From: Sulfurimonas autotrophica DSM 16294
GTDB taxonomy: Bacteria > Campylobacterota > Campylobacteria > Campylobacterales > Sulfurimonadaceae
Reading direction: 5' to 3'
Length of the DNA stretch: 64,000 bases
NCBI RefSeq assembly: GCF_000147355.1
Contig: NC_014506.1
Span: forward strand, 558,001-622,000
The position numbers and the translations under genes are program-made. Under the pieces are notes generated by a model. The model was not told where the DNA came from. It did not search any database and saw only the letters and a program-made list of their open reading frames with translations. Positions 56,426-63,998 of this stretch are shown here, one piece after another. Position 1 is the first letter of the stretch. Every line of letters starts with the position of its first letter.

Positions 56426-57697
56426 TTAAAGAAAGGCTACTTGGTTGCGTCCATTTGCTTTTGCTTCATAGAGTGCGTTGTCTACACGTTTTATAAGTGT
56501 TGTACTCTCTTCATTTGTTGTATATTGTGTGACTCCAATACTGACAGTAATTTGTTTCACATACTCAAAAAGGTGTTTTTCTATATTTTTACGTATTTTT
56601 TGAGCAAGTTCTAGTGCTTCATCTTTGTTTGTATGGGGTGCCACAAGTATAAACTCTTCTCCACCCCATCTTCCAAAACTGTCTGTTTTCCTAATAGTAC
56701 CCAAAACAACACGGCTAATCTCCTGAAGAACATAATCTCCTGTATCATGTCCATATGTGTCATTAACTTTTTTAAAGTTATCTATATCAAGCATTATCAG
56801 ACTAAATATTTCACCATAGCGCTTTGCTCTTTTTATTTCATCTTCAATTATTGTATTGATTTTATAGCGGTTATAAATACCTGTGAGTGTATCTTTTGTC
56901 GCAAGCTTTTTGAGCTGTTTTTCCAATGCTATGCGTTCAGTAATATCACGGCCTGTAGAGACAAAGTAATTGATATTTCCATTTTCGTCTTTTAATGGAG
57001 AGATGATTTTTTCATCATAGTAAAGAGAACCGTCTTTTTTCTTATTAATTAATATATTTTGATATGTATTGCCGCCTAAAATGCTTTTCCATAGGTTATC
57101 ATAAAACTCTTTTTGATGTACTCCGGACTTGAATATACGGTTATTTTGCCCAAGACTCTCATCTTGTGAAAATTGGGTATGTTTGACTGATGCCGGGTTT
57201 ACATAGATGATATTTCCCTTTACATCGGTGATGCGAACCATCTCCTCCATCTGCTCAATTGCTTGCGAAAGTAGTTTTAATTTTTTTTCACTCTCTTTAA
57301 GTTTTTGAGCCGCTTTTCTATTTTGTATGCGGTTTAAGAGATTCTTTAATTTTTCATTCACCATGTCCAAATCTATAGGTTTGAGTATATAACCATCTAC
57401 AGCGAGATTAATCGCCTCATATAAAAACTCACTGTCACTGTGCGCACTCAGGAGTAAAATAAGCTGTGATACATCTATGGCTTTGATGGCCTTTACCATC
57501 TCCAAGCCATTCATTTTAGGCATACGAATATCTGAAATAACGATGTCTGGACGGTGTTTTTTATAGAGCTCTAAACCCTCTGCACCATCTTGTGCCACAT
57601 AAAGCTCTTTACAAAATCGCTTTAAAAATCGAGAGAGCATCTCTCTGACATTCTCTTCATCTTCCACATAAAGAATAGTTGTATTATTTGTATTCAT
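56426..57697 (-). CDS. Response regulator with PAS and GGDEF domains
   Basis: A 423-residue protein with a receiver (about 1-120, Asp in IVISDIRMPKMNG), a coiled linker, a PAS domain (about 140-255, VRITDVKGNIIYVNPASVK) and a GGDEF domain (RWGGEEFILVA, DIDNFKKVND). It should convert a phospho-signal into c-di-GMP. It overlaps the upstream histidine kinase gene by 14 bases, which makes that kinase the probable phosphodonor. Confidence 0.9.
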   Translation of the reverse strand: MNTNNTTILYVEDEENVREMLSRFLKRFCKELYVAQDGAEGLELYKKHRPDIVISDIRMPKMNGLEMVKAIKAIDVSQLILLLSAHSDSEFLYEAINLAVDGYILKPIDLDMVNEKLKNLLNRIQNRKAAQKLKESEKKLKLLSQAIEQMEEMVRITDVKGNIIYVNPASVKHTQFSQDESLGQNNRIFKSGVHQKEFYDNLWKSILGGNTYQNILINKKKDGSLYYDEKIISPLKDENGNINYFVSTGRDITERIALEKQLKKLATKDTLTGIYNRYKINTIIEDEIKRAKRYGEIFSLIMLDIDNFKKVNDTYGHDTGDYVLQEISRVVLGTIRKTDSFGRWGGEEFILVAPHTNKDEALELAQKIRKNIEKHLFEYVKQITVSIGVTQYTTNEESTTLIKRVDNALYEAKANGRNQVAFL

Positions 57698-59642
57698 TAA
57701 GATTTATCCTAAATTCTGCACCCTCGGCAGTATTGCTTACATCGAGTTTTGCTTTTATATTCTCTTCAATGATCATTTTTGACATATAAAGACCCATACC
57801 CGTACCTTTGCCTTGCTCTTTGGTTGTAAAGTAAGGTTCAAAGATTCTGTTAAGAATTTCCACAGGAATACCGCCTCCGTTATCTCTGATGTAGATTGTT
57901 TTGTTCTTTAACTCTATGGTAATTTTTGCATCTTTTTGCTTGTTTTGTAATAAAATATCTTTTGCATTGTTAATAAGATTCAGAATTACCTGCTGAAATT
58001 CATTTTTATATCCGACTATTTCAAAACCCTCACCGATAAGTTCAACGGCAATATGATTATTTACCAGTTGTGCTTTTTGAATGGAAAGAACCCTTTCTAC
58101 GGCATCTTTAACATTGAAACGCTCTTTTGTCTTGTCAACTCTGTAAAAGTTTCTAAAGTCATCAATCGTATCAGACATAAATTTGATGACTTTTTTAGTT
58201 CCTTGAATAAATTCATCCAAATACTCCTCAGTAATCAAGCCGTCTTCATAGTCATATTTGAGGTTTTGTATCGCGATACCTATTTCATTAAGTGGCTGTC
58301 TCCATTGATGCGCAATCGCGCCTATCATCTCACCCATGGAAGCAAGTTTGCTCTGCTGTTGGAGTGCTTCGAGTTGTTTGATGTTCTCATCGGTTTTTTC
58401 TTTGACGATGTTTTCAAGGTTTTCATTAAGTCTGTTCAGTTCTTGGGTACGTTCATGTACTTTTTGTTCGATATCTTTTTTGCTCTCTTCGAGCTTTTGC
58501 AGCATTATCTGCAAGGAACTTGCAAGTTCTTCTATTTCATCTTTTGTATGAATGGCATCAAAATCTATCTCTTGTCGGTTGTTGCCTTGAGCAATCTCTT
58601 TTGCCGTTTTTGTGATTTTTGTAAGCGGTGTTATAAGATGACGCACTAAAAACAAAGATATTGATGCGATAATTAATGTGATTATAGTTATGTACGCAGA
58701 CAAAGAACCGATAAAATTGTCATACTGTTCTTTTGAAAAAGTCTCAGATGAACTGAGTGCAACAGAGATATGCTTGTCTTTTGTATAGATCAGCGTAGTA
58801 TAGGTAAAAAGAAGGTTATTTGTAAAATAACTCTTTTTGTTCAAACTAAAATCATGCATCAAAGTAGCATCATTATTACCGAATTCATAGCCAAAGATTT
58901 TTTTGTTGTTTTTGTTGTAAATATAGTAACCGTTTTTATCGGCAAGGTAGATGTTTTTATGATTGTTTGCATCTTTATACTGCTCTAAAACCGTAAAGAG
59001 TTTATCTACGTTGGCATTGATGATTAAAATTGCAAAAAGTTTACCCCCGAGATAGATCGGCAGTGCTGTACGCAGAGTTGGAGTCAAGGGATGGCTGATG
59101 CGCCCAAATTCACGATTGAGATTGATATCTGAGAGATAAGCTTTTCCGTCGGCTAACTGCATAGCTTCTTTGAAATATTTTTTCTTTGATTTGTCTTGGA
59201 GTTTGTTTTCCGGTCTGAGATGAATGCCCATTTTATCTTTATATGCCACAATTGCTTCTCTTCCGTTGTTTAAGAGAAGCCGGATATTAAAGTATGCTTT
59301 ATTGTGAGACAAAAGAGAGGTGAAATTGTCTTGCAGTGAATATATAATACCTGCTAAAGTTCTGTTTGTAACAGCGTCATAGTTGTACTTGTTGTTAAAG
59401 GCTCTGTAAAAAGCAATGATATCATCATCTTTAGAGAGAATTTTTGCATCATAAACCAATTTGTTTATACTGCCGTTTATACTTCTAGCATCTTCTTTGA
59501 GTTCAAATTGTAAATTTTCCAAACTATTTTGTTTGAAGTATTCTGTCATTAAAGAGTATGATAATAAAGCAATGGTGACAACACCGATTGCCGCAATGAT
59601 AAAAGTACCGATAGCAACTTTTGTTGAGAGACTAATGCGCAT
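57684..59642 (-). CDS. Histidine kinase with periplasmic Cache domain and HAMP
   Basis: A 652-residue membrane kinase with a first helix (about 9-30), a Cache-like periplasmic domain (about 35-295, YLSDINLNREFGRISHPLTP, LAIL...), a second helix (about 305-330), HAMP, and a long coiled coil (385-435). The phosphoaccepting His is in AIAHQWRQPLNE, the phylum-typical H box, followed by the ATPase (NLINNAKDILL, RDNGGGIPVE, GKGTGMGLYMSK). It overlaps the TPxDVY-repeat gene upstream by 11 bases and the REC-PAS-GGDEF gene downstream by 14. Confidence 0.92.
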   Translation of the reverse strand: MRISLSTKVAIGTFIIAAIGVVTIALLSYSLMTEYFKQNSLENLQFELKEDARSINGSINKLVYDAKILSKDDDIIAFYRAFNNKYNYDAVTNRTLAGIIYSLQDNFTSLLSHNKAYFNIRLLLNNGREAIVAYKDKMGIHLRPENKLQDKSKKKYFKEAMQLADGKAYLSDINLNREFGRISHPLTPTLRTALPIYLGGKLFAILIINANVDKLFTVLEQYKDANNHKNIYLADKNGYYIYNKNNKKIFGYEFGNNDATLMHDFSLNKKSYFTNNLLFTYTTLIYTKDKHISVALSSSETFSKEQYDNFIGSLSAYITIITLIIASISLFLVRHLITPLTKITKTAKEIAQGNNRQEIDFDAIHTKDEIEELASSLQIMLQKLEESKKDIEQKVHERTQELNRLNENLENIVKEKTDENIKQLEALQQQSKLASMGEMIGAIAHQWRQPLNEIGIAIQNLKYDYEDGLITEEYLDEFIQGTKKVIKFMSDTIDDFRNFYRVDKTKERFNVKDAVERVLSIQKAQLVNNHIAVELIGEGFEIVGYKNEFQQVILNLINNAKDILLQNKQKDAKITIELKNKTIYIRDNGGGIPVEILNRIFEPYFTTKEQGKGTGMGLYMSKMIIEENIKAKLDVSNTAEGAEFRINLNEYK

Positions 59643-61407
59643 AACTGCCGTCTTTGAGTATTTGTTTGGTAAGTGTATTGGTTGCTTCTATTACGCTGTA
59701 AATATCAGATGGTGTTTTACCTTGAAATATTTTGTTACTTTTATTGCCTTTATACTCCATTCCATAATAAATATGCAGTTCTGAAACCGTACCGCTGATA
59801 AGACGCAGCGCATTATAAACAGAGTTTGGCGTAATTATTTTATCACGAGGAATGGCGATAGTGGCAGAGTCAACATTACCTCGTTTTTTGATTTTTGTTA
59901 ATATTTTCATAAGTTGTAAACTCTGTAAAAACACATCATGAGGTGATCGTGCTTCATGTGGCAACATGGCTATATTGATATGTTTGTGTAAAAAATTATC
60001 GCTGATTATCTGCACATTCTTATATAGCTTGAGGGCAAGCGTATAGGTCTCATTCGGGGTATATTGCTGATTTAAAATAGTATCAAGTTCATATGATATT
60101 TTCCACAGCTTATTATAAACATCAGAAGGTGTTTTATCTTGGTATATTTTTTTATCAAGATAGTTTCTGTAAGAGATAAAGTTGTAGTTGTATTTTTTTG
60201 CATTGTAAATAAGATTTATTTCATCATCAAGGCGTAAGATAAGCTCATATACTTCACTTGGTGTGATTTTTGTGTTTGGTGCATCAGGAATCTGAGATGG
60301 ATAAAACCCTTCAAGGGCTTTAAGTCTTGACACTTTTTCCAAATCTTCAAGACCTTTTACATAAACATAAATAGGCTGTAGTCCGTAAACATAAGGAACT
60401 TTTTTAGCCTTGATTTGAATGCCCCCTTGTTCTTTAATATGCATAATTTTATGAAGAATGAACTCACTCAAGGCATAAACTTCATTTGGCGTTTTTATGA
60501 GTGATTTTTGCGGGTATTGATTGAGCCGATGTGAAAAGGAAAAAGTAGGAAGCAGTGCTTTTGCATATTCAAGATTTTGTACAACATCTGAAGGTGTTTT
60601 TTTGGTTTTTGGCTTTTGCGGAGGAAAACTCCGCTCAATTCCCAAACGGCGCGAGAGTCTGTTAAGCTCTGCTTTTACTGTTTGAAGTGAATCATAAACT
60701 TCTGTAGGTGAGATGACTTTTTGTTTGATTCTTGGTACGGGTACGGGTGCCATCCAGAGCTTTTTTTCATCTTCACTTATCGCTTTTATTAAATCACGAG
60801 AGGCATAAAGTGCATGATTTGGATGAAGATTGGGCTTTTTAGACGGCATTTTTATATCATTGTATTCTCTTTGTGAAGAACGTAGAAATTTAATCCTCTC
60901 AACAATTTGCTCTGATTGAATATAAACATCTGTTGGTGTGAAGCCTTGCCCGATTAAACTGTCAAAACCAAGAGAAACAGTCCAAAGAACCTGATAAACA
61001 TCACTTGGAGTTTTTCCTTTGTACTGTTTAAACGTAAAGTGTGTTTTTTGATTTTTTAAAAGGTAATGTATTTCCTCTTTTAATCGGATAACATTGTTAT
61101 AAACATCCTGAGGTGTAATTTTTCTCGGCGGTACAGGTGGAACTGTAATAAGTCCAAATTTATATATTTCACGATATTTGTTTACCTTTGTCAAAACTTC
61201 GAGTGTTTTTTGAATAACATGACGCGGAAGTTTATTATGCTGCTGCTCTACCTTCTTGAGTGGTTGCGTGATACCGTTTTCCCTGCGTAGTTCTCCAACC
61301 ATTTGTTTAAGTACCATTGACTGCGAATAAACATCAGAAGGTGTTTTTTCATCTGCATACAATCCTATCAAGCAGCATAAATATAACAGCAAAAATATTT
61401 TTTTCAT
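59632..61407 (-). CDS. Periplasmic TPxDVY-repeat protein, first gene of a signalling operon
   Basis: A 591-residue protein with a signal peptide (MKKIFLLLYLCCLIGLYADE) and about 15 copies of a helical unit beginning [KI]TPS[DE]VY followed by about 15-20 residues of amphipathic helix (e.g. KTPSDVYQVLWTVSLGFDSL, ITPSEVYELILRLDDEINLI). The repeats form two tandem super-modules of about six motifs each (roughly residues 90-320 and 330-585) with matching order and spacing. No known family is recognised. It is translationally coupled to the Cache histidine kinase gene and so is probably a ligand-binding or scaffold partner of that kinase. Confidence 0.78.
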   Translation of the reverse strand: MKKIFLLLYLCCLIGLYADEKTPSDVYSQSMVLKQMVGELRRENGITQPLKKVEQQHNKLPRHVIQKTLEVLTKVNKYREIYKFGLITVPPVPPRKITPQDVYNNVIRLKEEIHYLLKNQKTHFTFKQYKGKTPSDVYQVLWTVSLGFDSLIGQGFTPTDVYIQSEQIVERIKFLRSSQREYNDIKMPSKKPNLHPNHALYASRDLIKAISEDEKKLWMAPVPVPRIKQKVISPTEVYDSLQTVKAELNRLSRRLGIERSFPPQKPKTKKTPSDVVQNLEYAKALLPTFSFSHRLNQYPQKSLIKTPNEVYALSEFILHKIMHIKEQGGIQIKAKKVPYVYGLQPIYVYVKGLEDLEKVSRLKALEGFYPSQIPDAPNTKITPSEVYELILRLDDEINLIYNAKKYNYNFISYRNYLDKKIYQDKTPSDVYNKLWKISYELDTILNQQYTPNETYTLALKLYKNVQIISDNFLHKHINIAMLPHEARSPHDVFLQSLQLMKILTKIKKRGNVDSATIAIPRDKIITPNSVYNALRLISGTVSELHIYYGMEYKGNKSNKIFQGKTPSDIYSVIEATNTLTKQILKDGSYAH

Positions 61408-61437: not shown

Positions 61438-61470
61438 CAAAAGAACTCTCTAAATTATTATTAATTTTGT

Positions 61471-61476
61471 TACAAT
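61471..61476 (+). promoter_or_regulatory. Probable -10 element very close to the GNAT start
   Basis: TACAAT (TTGTTACAATTC) ends 5 bases before the ATG at 61482, again without a ribosome binding site between, which suggests a leaderless message. Confidence 0.35.
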
Positions 61477-61481
61477 TCTTT

Positions 61482-61898
61482 ATGCAAATAAGAGAAATGA
61501 CATTAAAAGAACTCTACACTGTTTATGATGTAATAAAACAACTCCGAACCGAGCTTAGTTATGAAGAGTTTGAAGACCTTATATACGATATGCGGCATAT
61601 GGAGTATAAAATGTTTGGCATACTCGAACGGGGTAAATTGGTATGCTACAGCGGTGCTGCTGTGCAGACAAACTTGTACCACAAAAGACATTTATATATT
61701 TTTGATTTGGTCACAGATGAAAAATACCGCTATAAAGGATATGGGAAAATGATGCTGGAATATTTACATGATTATGCCAAAACAGCCGCCTGTGAAAATC
61801 TCGTACTCTCCTCAGGAGTGCAAAGGCAAGAAGCCCACAGCTTTTATGAAAAAGCAGGCTTTGAAAAAAAGAGCTACCTATTTGTGAAAGTTCTTTAA
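61482..61898 (+). CDS. GNAT-family N-acetyltransferase
   Basis: A 138-residue protein from ATG 61482 (MQIREMTLKEL), which keeps the first beta-strand of the fold. The acetyl-CoA loop is KYRYKGYGKMMLEYL, and the C-terminal part has SFYEKAGFEKKSYLFVK. The substrate is unknown. It overlaps the convergent GGDEF-EAL gene by 21 bases. Confidence 0.85.
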   Translation: MQIREMTLKELYTVYDVIKQLRTELSYEEFEDLIYDMRHMEYKMFGILERGKLVCYSGAAVQTNLYHKRHLYIFDLVTDEKYRYKGYGKMMLEYLHDYAKTAACENLVLSSGVQRQEAHSFYEKAGFEKKSYLFVKVL

Positions 61899-63998
61899 AA
61901 ATCGTGTTGTGTCTTCTATGGACATAGGCTTTGCAAAATAATACCCTTGAATGTTATGACATCCGTTTTCTAACATAAATTCAAGTTGTTGCGCTGTTTC
62001 AACACCCTCAGCTAAGGTCTTTAATCCAAGGCTTGATGCAAGCGCAATAATGGCTTTTACTATAGAAATATCATCTTTATTGTCTGGAAGTTCCACTACA
62101 AATGATTTGTCTATTTTAATCTTACTAATAGGAAGTTTTTTTATGTATGACAAGGAGGAATATCCCGTTCCAAAGTCATCTATTGAAATTTTTATGCCTA
62201 GCTCTTTTAGTCGATTTAGTTTAGCAATGGATTCTTCTGGTTTTTGCATTAGTCCACTTTCTGTGATTTCAAGTTCAATTTTCTCTGGGGGGCATTTACT
62301 TGAAGAGATAAGATTACTTATAGATAGCTCAAAATCATCTTTTTGCAGTTGTTTCATAGCGAGATTGAGTGATAAGCTTCCCGTGAATATATTTTCATTT
62401 CGCCATTGCATTACTTGTGCTAGAGCTTTTTTCATAACAATTCTGTCAAGTTCTACTATCATGCCTGTTTCTTCTGCAAAAGGTATAAACTCATCAGGAT
62501 AAATCATATTTCCATTCTCATCAATCCATCGGACTAAAGCTTCAAGTCCTATGATTTCTTTAGTTTGAGCATTAATCTGAGGTTGAAAATAGACATCAAA
62601 CACTTCATTTTTTATTGCATTTCTAAGTTTAGACTGCATAGAGATTCTTTTCATAGCTTTTTGTGTCATCTCTTGGGAATAAAATTGATAATTACCTTTT
62701 CCTTCATCTTTTGCCTTGTACATAGCAGCATCAGCACACTTAAGAAGATTTTGTGCATCAGTGGAATCTTTAGGATACACGCTTATTCCCACACTTGCAG
62801 AAATATATAATACATGTTCGCCGATATCTATGCCTTTGTTCGTTGTATCTAGAATTTTTTGTGTTAAAGTTGAAAGAGCTTCTATATTTTTATAATCATC
62901 AACAATAATCACAAACTCATCACCTCCAATTCTTGCAAGTGTATCTTTTTCCCTAATGGCTTGCTTGAATCTTTGTGCAATAATTTTTAAAACTTTATCA
63001 CCCATATGATGACCTAAAGAATCATTAATCTCTTTAAACTCATCCAGATCAATAAATAGGAGTGCACAATCTTGAGAATTTCTTTTGGCATTATCAATAC
63101 TTAGTGCAAGCCTGTCTTGAAAGAGTGCCCTGTTTGGTAAAAGTGTCAGTTCATCATGTGTTGCTTGAAAATGAAGCTTTTTGGACTGTTGCACAATTTG
63201 TTGCTGCATGTTCTTTGTGTCGGTGATATCTTCATAAATACCTAGTATTCCAATATTTTCGTCATTTATCCCTACAAGTGGTACTTTTGAGGTGGAGAGT
63301 ATAATTGTTTGGCCATTCTCATCAGTCTGTTTTTCTTCAATTTGTAATTTTGCTATTCTTTCTTTGATTACTTCCTGATCATCATTCATATATTTTTTAG
63401 CATCAGTTTTTGCCCAAACCATATCTAAGTCAGTTTTTCCTAAAATTTCATCAATGGAGTTAAGTTTTGCATCCTGTAAAAAAAGATTGTTGGCGCCTAA
63501 ATATTTTCCATTTGTATCTTTCCAAAAAACCCGTACCGGCAAAGTGTTTATGATATTTTGAAGCAATTTAAATTGGTTTTGTACATTTATTTGTAAATTT
63601 TTTCTTTCGGTAATATCTATACTTATCTGAACAACACCTTGAATGTTTTTTTCACTGCTACTTATTGGAGAGAGTGAAAATTCTATGTATTTTCCAGAAG
63701 AGGTGTCTTCACTTTCATAATGTTCAATATATTTTTTTTGCTCTATTGCCTGACATATAGAACATTGGGATTTTTGTGAATTTTTTGGATGAAAAAGCTC
63801 GTGATTTGATTTACCAATTATGTCAATTTCTGCTAAAGATAAAAATTCACAAGCAGCATGATTGATTTGCCTTACCATACCTAATTCATCAACTACTGCT
63901 GCAGCAACAGGAATTGCATCATAGGTCGAAGCACCTTTTTGCATTAACGTAAAAGGCTCTTTTAGAGATGTTTTAATAATAGCCTGTAAAAGTACCCA
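61878..63998 (-). CDS. PAS-PAS-GGDEF-EAL protein (5' partial)
   Basis: The frame is open to the window edge, 18 codons beyond the ATG at 63944, and those codons (LLQAIIKTSLKEPFTLM) fit the lead-in to a PAS domain, so the gene probably starts outside. Two PAS domains (about 10-115 and 130-245) precede GGDEF with an intact RIGGDEFVIIV and DLDEFKEIND. The EAL domain has IGLEALVRW, ELEITESGL and DDFGTGYSS. Both the cyclase and phosphodiesterase active sites look intact; which dominates is unknown. No membrane helix is seen in the part available. Confidence 0.9.
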   Translation of the reverse strand, partial: WVLLQAIIKTSLKEPFTLMQKGASTYDAIPVAAAVVDELGMVRQINHAACEFLSLAEIDIIGKSNHELFHPKNSQKSQCSICQAIEQKKYIEHYESEDTSSGKYIEFSLSPISSSEKNIQGVVQISIDITERKNLQINVQNQFKLLQNIINTLPVRVFWKDTNGKYLGANNLFLQDAKLNSIDEILGKTDLDMVWAKTDAKKYMNDDQEVIKERIAKLQIEEKQTDENGQTIILSTSKVPLVGINDENIGILGIYEDITDTKNMQQQIVQQSKKLHFQATHDELTLLPNRALFQDRLALSIDNAKRNSQDCALLFIDLDEFKEINDSLGHHMGDKVLKIIAQRFKQAIREKDTLARIGGDEFVIIVDDYKNIEALSTLTQKILDTTNKGIDIGEHVLYISASVGISVYPKDSTDAQNLLKCADAAMYKAKDEGKGNYQFYSQEMTQKAMKRISMQSKLRNAIKNEVFDVYFQPQINAQTKEIIGLEALVRWIDENGNMIYPDEFIPFAEETGMIVELDRIVMKKALAQVMQWRNENIFTGSLSLNLAMKQLQKDDFELSISNLISSSKCPPEKIELEITESGLMQKPEESIAKLNRLKELGIKISIDDFGTGYSSLSYIKKLPISKIKIDKSFVVELPDNKDDISIVKAIIALASSLGLKTLAEGVETAQQLEFMLENGCHNIQGYYFAKPMSIEDTTRFLKNFHK

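What the first reader, a model, noticed from the sequence alone, without database searches (positions are those of the whole stretch)
59632..61407. A new-looking periplasmic repeat protein (TPxDVY) heads a c-di-GMP signalling operon
About 15 units of a TP-[SQNT]-[DE]-V-Y motif, each followed by an amphipathic helix, fill almost the whole 591-residue secreted protein. The units fall into two super-modules with the same order and spacing (ITPxxVY, KTPSDVYxxLW, FTPTDVY/YTPNETY, a degenerate one, ISPTEVY/ITPNSVY with SxLxxxYG, KTPSDxxxx), so a multi-motif block was duplicated once. Its 3' end overlaps a Cache-HAMP histidine kinase gene by 11 bases, which overlaps a REC-PAS-GGDEF gene by 14. This predicts a pathway from the repeat protein through the kinase to c-di-GMP. 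I know of no described system of this kind.
Basis: partly seen in the sequence, partly recalled or inferred. Interest (0 to 1): 0.85.

Follow-up and report, generated by a model that had tools for sequence, protein, structure and literature searches.

The report
Periplasmic helical-repeat partner of membrane sensors
A previously unnamed family of secreted proteins, built from 8 or 16 copies of one helix motif, is usually encoded directly before a membrane sensor (kinase, chemotaxis receptor or c-di-GMP enzyme), so it is probably a new kind of outside partner for bacterial sensors.

Summary
The gene at 59632-61407 encodes 591 residues with 16 repeat units (8+8), not about 15; each unit begins a predicted helix, and both overlaps (11 and 14 bases) are as stated. 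No Pfam or NCBIfam family matches above its cut-off, and no solved structure by sequence.

A survey finds a wide family: about 600-residue (16-unit) proteins, mainly in Campylobacterota, and about 300-residue (8-unit) proteins in Campylobacterota, Gamma- and Alphaproteobacteria. A tree supports one duplication of an 8-unit ancestor. In 60 of 73 distinct family genes the next gene on the same strand is a membrane receptor, against 9 of 363 control genes. Outputs vary: kinase (34), chemotaxis receptor (22), GGDEF/EAL (2), other HAMP receptors (2). Between relatives with different outputs the receptor's periplasmic domain can be conserved. In 398 genomes of the window's order, the 21 with the repeat protein are exactly the 21 with this subfamily of Cache sensor domain.

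Best explanation: a periplasmic co-receptor that docks on sensor ectodomains; in the window it would feed a kinase and a diguanylate cyclase. Binding, ligand and sign are untested.

The parts
59632..61407 (-). TPxDVY repeat protein, 591 aa: signal-peptide-like N-terminus and 16 units (8+8), each one helix started by the motif
   Evidence: no curated family match; no PDB sequence match
60499..61407 (-). N-terminal half: signal peptide and units 1-8 (residues 1-303)
   Evidence: Aligns with the C-terminal half; the 20 N halves in the tree form one clade, support 1.0
59635..60498 (-). C-terminal half: units 9-16 (residues 304-591)
   Evidence: the 20 C halves in the tree form one clade, support 0.987
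57684..59642 (-). Histidine kinase, 652 aa: TM, double-Cache-type sensor domain (PF21623), TM, HAMP, H-box AHQWRQP (res. 444), HATPase_c; overlaps the repeat gene by 11 bases
58638..59642 (-). N-terminal 335 residues of the kinase with the periplasmic sensor domain, the proposed docking site
   Evidence: Profile A6; genome-level co-occurrence with TPxDVY
56426..57697 (-). Response regulator with diguanylate cyclase, REC-PAS-GGDEF, 423 aa; RxxD and GGEEF present; overlaps the kinase gene by 14 bases

Best explanation
The TPxDVY protein is a soluble periplasmic co-receptor (accessory sensor) for membrane receptors. Each unit is one helix of about 20 residues started by an N-cap motif (T/S-P-x-D/E, then V-Y facing the core). 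Eight units make one helical module, and the window protein has two. It is co-translated with its receptor and docks on the receptor's periplasmic domain, where it changes signalling in response to something it binds or feels. In the window the order would be TPxDVY protein -> Cache/HAMP histidine kinase -> REC phosphorylation -> GGDEF diguanylate cyclase -> c-di-GMP; in relatives the same kind of protein feeds chemotaxis receptors, GGDEF-EAL proteins or a SpoIIE-type phosphatase. Shown here: repeats, predicted all-helical modules, operon-like linkage, co-occurrence with the sensor domain, conservation of the ectodomain across output swaps. Inferred: export, helix capping and core packing, co-translation, direct binding, sign of the effect, ligand.
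For: (1) 60 of 73 distinct family genes have, as the next gene on the same strand, a membrane receptor (34 histidine kinases, 22 MCPs, 2 GGDEF/EAL, 2 other HAMP receptors); control genes in the same loci 9 of 363. All 60 lie within 100 bases and 33 overlap, with starts as called mechanically. (2) In 398 genomes of the window's order the 21 with TPxDVY are exactly the 21 with a sensor-domain hit of at least 219 bits; the next best hit falls to 186 bits, in a genome without TPxDVY; 12 of the 21 gave no row to that profile. In two of the 21 (G326, G301) a TPxDVY gene without receptor neighbour and a kinase of this subfamily without TPxDVY neighbour lie apart in one genome. (3) Output swaps keep the ectodomain: one alphaproteobacterial-type ectodomain sits on MCPs and on kinases (L063 E=5e-37, L070 E=8e-27), another on an MCP, a kinase and a GGDEF-EAL protein (L118/L153/L152, pairwise E 2e-19, 5e-22, 3e-8), and the Cache type on kinases, a SpoIIE protein and a PAS protein (E-values for a set of 30 ectodomains; domains). 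(4) AlphaFold2 models: 16 main helices, pLDDT 88.1, pTM 0.84, and 8 helices, pLDDT 88.6, pTM 0.85; each main helix starts at a motif. (5) H-box, REC Asp, RxxD and GGEEF are present in the partner genes.
Against: No binding was tested and no complex could be modelled. 13 of 73 genes fail the neighbour test: two sit before what looks like a receptor broken into two frames (L012 at 10937, L147), one is in a che-like cluster (L155), one is followed by a lone REC (L121), one is convergent with a REC-REC-GGDEF gene (L129) and one with a cyclase gene (L107). The others are beside unrelated genes (gas vesicle L064, Mur ligase L130, TonB receptors L108 and L110, TPR L109, and L149, L151, whose neighbours were not identified). 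About four ectodomain families with no or weak mutual similarity are served, which is odd for one specific docking surface. One GGDEF-EAL partner (L012) shows only one TM segment as called. The co-occurrence is not corrected for phylogeny, its cut was chosen after seeing the gap, and the search scored at most five candidates per genome. No signal-peptide predictor was run.
Confidence: 0.72

Rival explanations
1. It is a dedicated periplasmic chaperone or stabiliser for the receptor ectodomain (folding or protection), not a signal input.
For: Close linkage and strict pairing with the ectodomain subfamily fit a chaperone equally well; helical, mostly Cys-free proteins (49 of 68 without Cys after residue 40).
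Against: Many relatives of the receptors manage without it: 92 of 398 genomes have a related Cache domain at E<=1e-20, only 21 have TPxDVY. A multi-unit duplicated array kept in register is more than a simple clamp seems to need (inference).
Confidence: 0.12
2. It is an envelope-stress gauge that inhibits or activates the receptor when titrated away, as CpxP does for CpxA, or bridges to the outer membrane as QseG does for QseE.
For: Precedents: CpxP-CpxA (PMC4160245, abstract) and QseG-QseE (PMC12691602, sections on architecture and discussion). Two TPxDVY loci have an outer-membrane Alginate_exp gene next or next but one.
Against: A lipobox-like string occurs in only 2 of 68 sequences, so an outer-membrane anchor as in QseG is unlikely; no LTxxQ motif. 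Pairing with chemotaxis receptors suits environmental sensing better than stress control (inference).
Confidence: 0.13
3. The repeat protein has an unrelated function (structural, adhesive or enzymatic) and its place beside sensors is chance or a by-product of gene transfer.
For: 13 of 73 genes are not followed by an intact receptor gene.
Against: 60 of 73 against 9 of 363, up to three outputs with the same ectodomain, and 21-of-21 co-occurrence.
Confidence: 0.03

Closest known systems
NspS-MbaA (periplasmic polyamine-binding protein with a c-di-GMP receptor enzyme), and other binding-protein-assisted receptors such as AioX-AioS and GltB-GtrS
   Same: Periplasmic partner that gives a membrane receptor its input; such proteins serve kinases and c-di-GMP enzymes (search listings with starts of abstracts only).
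   Different: That these partners have the two-lobed alpha/beta solute-binding fold is recalled. Here the model is all helical with 8 or 16 repeat units and no Pfam match.
QseG-QseE
   Same: Helical accessory protein encoded in one cluster with the kinase and binding its ectodomain to control autokinase activity (PMC12691602: outline, sections 9 and 13 read).
   Different: QseG is an outer-membrane lipoprotein, there described with QseE only; TPxDVY proteins mostly lack a lipobox (2 of 68 have a like string), carry 8 or 16 repeats and go with several receptor kinds.
CpxP-CpxA (LTXXQ family)
   Same: Periplasmic accessory protein of a histidine kinase (PMC4160245, outline and abstract); helical with a short repeated motif (recalled).
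   Different: No LTxxQ motif in the window protein; the LTXXQ Pfam family (PF07813, number recalled) is not among the hits.
TPR, Sel1 and other alpha-repeat proteins
   Same: Arrays of helical units of about 35-40 residues (recalled for those families).
   Different: One helix plus a long linker per unit instead of a helix pair; no Pfam repeat family matched.

Membership tests
Any curated family (Pfam, NCBIfam, PHROGs) | Match above the curated cut-off | tested here: not met
   Best Pfam DUF5496 12.3 bits (cut-off 27); best NCBIfam dltC 18 bits, E=0.0023 (cut-off 52.35); best PHROG E=0.023 (no cut-off); 4 full-length members in Pfam: two weak hits, best PexRD54_WY E=0.0036 in 1 of 4; 13 half-length members: best E 0.0032 (NCBIfam, 1 of 13) and 0.068 (Pfam, 1 of 13)
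Relatives of known structure | Sequence or fold match to a PDB chain | tested here: inconclusive
   Sequence: none, profiles best E=0.03 and 0.24. Fold: Foldseek 0 matches with E<=0.001 for both models; VIA best Z 5.1 and 4.9, partial, to lyase helices
Periplasmic solute-binding proteins | Two-lobed alpha/beta fold | tested here: not met
   Predicted models list helices only, no strands of 3 or more residues
Periplasmic solute-binding proteins | Works as ligand-bound partner of a receptor | not testable with these tools
   Needs binding assays
CpxP/Spy LTXXQ family | LTxxQ motifs and Pfam match | tested here: not met
   No LTxxQ in the window protein; the family is not among Pfam hits
QseG-like lipoproteins | Lipobox cysteine | tested here: not met
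   The window protein is not among the 2 of 68 members with a lipobox-like string
TPR/Sel1/HEAT solenoids | Pfam repeat match | tested here: not met
   No such hit
Cache-type sensor histidine kinase (partner gene) | PF21623 sensor, HAMP, H-box, HATPase | tested here: met
   PF21623 72.2 bits (cut-off 27), HAMP 40.3, HATPase_c 70; H-box AHQWRQP; HisKA 20.2 bits is below its cut-off 26.9
Diguanylate cyclase response regulator (third gene) | REC Asp, GG[DE]EF and I-site RxxD | tested here: met
   Response_reg 85.3 bits and GGDEF 154.2 bits; RKTDSFGRWGGEEF and DIVISD

The most novel reading that the evidence does not exclude
TPxDVY proteins are a general class of periplasmic co-receptors with a new single-helix-repeat fold. 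The helical module itself recognises the outside signal and can dock on several unrelated ectodomain folds, so that bacteria plug the same sensing module into phosphorelay, chemotaxis, c-di-GMP or phosphatase outputs, much as solute-binding proteins are used.
Probability: 0.4. Interest if true: 0.85.

Novelty: new variant of a known kind. Interest (0 to 1): 0.72.

Why it matters
Most bacterial receptors have unknown inputs. A family of apparent periplasmic partners shared by kinases, chemotaxis receptors and c-di-GMP enzymes, and not found in the libraries and paper searches made here, would give many orphan receptors a candidate input subunit and a single assay target. If the fold is new, it also adds a helical-repeat architecture to periplasmic proteins. 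The split pairs and output swaps make the partnership directly testable.

Tried and rejected
Rejected: chance repeats (13 motif matches against 0.03 in shuffles); membership in TPR, LTXXQ or solute-binding families (see membership rows); operon linkage as coincidence; recent foreign origin by base composition (GC 0.34-0.35 over the operon, within the range of its flanks; weak test); promoter and terminator scans were near chance level (25 against 22.8 and 5 against 3.0). Fold matches to aspartase and fumarase helices (Z up to 5.1, partial) were taken as common helix packing. A tblastn of the L065 repeat protein against plasmids found nothing. Paper searches for the motif (0 papers), for helical-repeat partners of chemoreceptors (0), for Sulfurimonas autotrophica with these enzymes (0), and for accessory proteins of receptors (listings, with passages of PMC8534201) gave no description of this family that I saw; the library holds open-licence papers only. 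No fusion of the repeat to a receptor was seen (open frames up to 630 aa). The Foldseek 'viral' library was not searched.
Full report
WHAT IS THERE. The gene is on the minus strand, 59632-61407, 591 residues. It has an N-terminal hydrophobic stretch ending LYA-DE, read here as a cleavable signal peptide (by eye; no predictor was run), and no lipobox-like string. Sixteen units follow, eight per half, with unit lengths 38,38,35,24,38,38,38,35 and 38,38,44,24,38,38,39,28. Thirteen match a loose motif pattern, against 0.03 expected from shuffles, and the halves align with each other at 28% identity, E=1e-33. The kinase gene overlaps by 11 bases and the REC-PAS-GGDEF gene overlaps the kinase gene by 14. 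The key residues of kinase and cyclase are present.

STRUCTURE. AlphaFold2 with a 17-sequence alignment gives pLDDT 88.1 and pTM 0.84. Besides the signal-peptide helix there are 16 main helices (and one short helix at 300-303). Each main helix starts at the second residue of a motif (the proline in this protein), and the linkers are mostly about 17 residues long, 5 after the two short units and longer in a few places. So the motif reads as a helix N-cap (T/S at the cap, P next, D/E two on: general knowledge of helix capping) followed by V and Y, presumably in the core. A half-length relative from a contig titled Endozoicomonas sp., with a 13-sequence alignment, gives 8 helices with pLDDT 88.6 and pTM 0.85. 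Foldseek against the PDB gave no match with E<=0.001 for either model (110 and 102 matches with E<=10). A second aligner gave at most Z 5.1 and 4.9 over parts, which its own notes call uninformative for helical proteins. So no known fold was found, but a new fold is not proven.

FAMILY. No curated family fits above its cut-off, and no solved relative was found by sequence. Searches found relatives in 5 of 298 genomes of the window's class with the single protein, and with profiles in 21 of 398 genomes of its order, 13 of 295 of the order around an Alteromonas-titled genome, 13 of 185 of the class around a Kangiellaceae MAG, one of them a weak fragment, 2 of 190 of the class around a Pelagibius genome and 1 of 176 of the order around a Tritonibacter genome. 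The centre genome is counted in each tally. A scan of named genome contigs gave 29 loci: 16 with 16-unit forms (or a cut one, L056), mostly in Campylobacterota MAGs, and 13 with 8-unit forms in contigs titled Endozoicomonas, Alteromonas, Pelagibius, Tritonibacter, Epibacterium, Oceanicola and others. In a tree of 40 halves from 20 full-length proteins and 48 half-length proteins, the N halves form a clade (support 1.0), the C halves form a clade (0.987), and both together form one (0.857): a single duplication of an 8-unit ancestor. One full-length protein (L130) was left out. The window's genome is 2,153,198 bases in one contig; its nearest named relatives are Sulfurimonas MAGs (up to 72% identity), and from memory the size fits Sulfurimonas autotrophica, which no call confirms. 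That its order is Campylobacterales follows from that.

NEIGHBOURS. A script took all distinct repeat genes held in the window and 81 loci: 73 genes. The next gene on the same strand is a membrane receptor in 60 (34 histidine kinases, 22 MCPs, 2 GGDEF/EAL, 2 other HAMP receptors). All 60 lie within 100 bases and 33 overlap as called. The same test on 363 other genes of these loci, more than three genes away, gave 9. Domains were called with my own profiles, built from window domains and MCPs of the loci and iterated in part on these loci. Pfam confirmed those it was asked about: 10 of the 22 MCPs, 4 of the 34 kinases and both other receptors, one with GAF-SpoIIE. The 13 misses are listed under evidence against. 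Of the 21 full-length proteins 20 have the receptor, 19 of these kinases. A REC-GGDEF gene stands third in 14 of the 21, the window included; in one more REC and GGDEF are separate genes and in one the contig ends.

THE ECTODOMAIN IS THE CONSTANT. A profile of the sensor domains of 17 receptors next to repeat genes was run on 398 genomes of the order. Hits of 219 bits or more fall in 21 genomes, exactly those with a repeat gene. The next hit, 186 bits, is a GGDEF protein in a genome without one. Two of these genomes (G326, G301) have a repeat gene without a receptor neighbour and a kinase of this subfamily without a repeat neighbour; G301 also has a normal pair. Within families of ectodomain the output changes while the repeat gene stays: MCP and kinase; MCP, kinase and GGDEF-EAL; kinase, SpoIIE and PAS. 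Yet about four groups of ectodomains show no or little similarity to each other (one weak cross-hit, L148, E=6e-6 in a set of 30), and a few (L122, L133) fit none.

MECHANISM. The simplest reading is a periplasmic partner that acts on receptor ectodomains. Close linkage and overlapping genes suggest coupled, roughly matched production, which suits a standing complex better than a feedback inhibitor (inference). Precedents for such partners are NspS-MbaA, AioX-AioS, GltB-GtrS (starts of abstracts in listings), CpxP-CpxA (abstract) and QseG-QseE, where a cryo-EM structure shows a helical accessory protein straddling a four-helix-bundle sensor dimer (sections read). The window system would end in c-di-GMP synthesis. 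Whether the partner activates or inhibits, and what it senses, is unknown.

VERDICT. The family was not found in the libraries and papers searched here; the kind of system (receptor with a periplasmic partner) is known, but this protein type, its several outputs and its so far unmatched fold make it a new variant.

Noticed in passing
window 61878-63944 (-) and 61467-61898 (+): A PAS-GGDEF-EAL gene (two PAS stretches) and a divergent GNAT acetyltransferase gene lie just upstream of the operon; a second c-di-GMP enzyme within 3 kb.
   Followed up: partly
L145 1770-2690 and L142 2424-6017 (G326); L130 5575-7284 and L143 5608-7443 (G301): Genomes where a repeat gene and a receptor of its usual subfamily lie on different contigs, each without the other as neighbour: possible split partners.
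   Followed up: partly
L064 9926-10819 (also L123 8388-9281): In a contig titled Thiosymbion ectosymbiont the repeat gene precedes a GvpL/GvpF gas-vesicle gene and an ArsA-type ATPase gene, not a receptor.
   Followed up: no
L012 5883-8187 and 9197-10950; L147 6338-8196: Receptor genes next to repeat genes that look broken into two frames, perhaps decay or sequencing errors; described only.
   Followed up: no
L059 12836-14164; L107 6162-7481: Outer-membrane Alginate_exp (PF13372) genes near two repeat genes, hinting at an outer-membrane link in some members.
   Followed up: no
L056 10202-11791 (same as L141): Full-length-type repeat gene lacking its N-terminal start in frame; one search reports a stop inside the N-terminal match (G360).
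   Followed up: no
L055 and L057: Contigs titled Persephonella and Nitrospirae MAGs carry 16-unit repeat genes with Cache receptors; may be transfer or mis-binned DNA (L057 is the more divergent).
   Followed up: no
L111-L117: Seven genomes of one order share one arrangement: a 305-residue repeat gene overlapping a 647-664-residue MCP gene, by 4 bases in six of the seven as called.
   Followed up: partly
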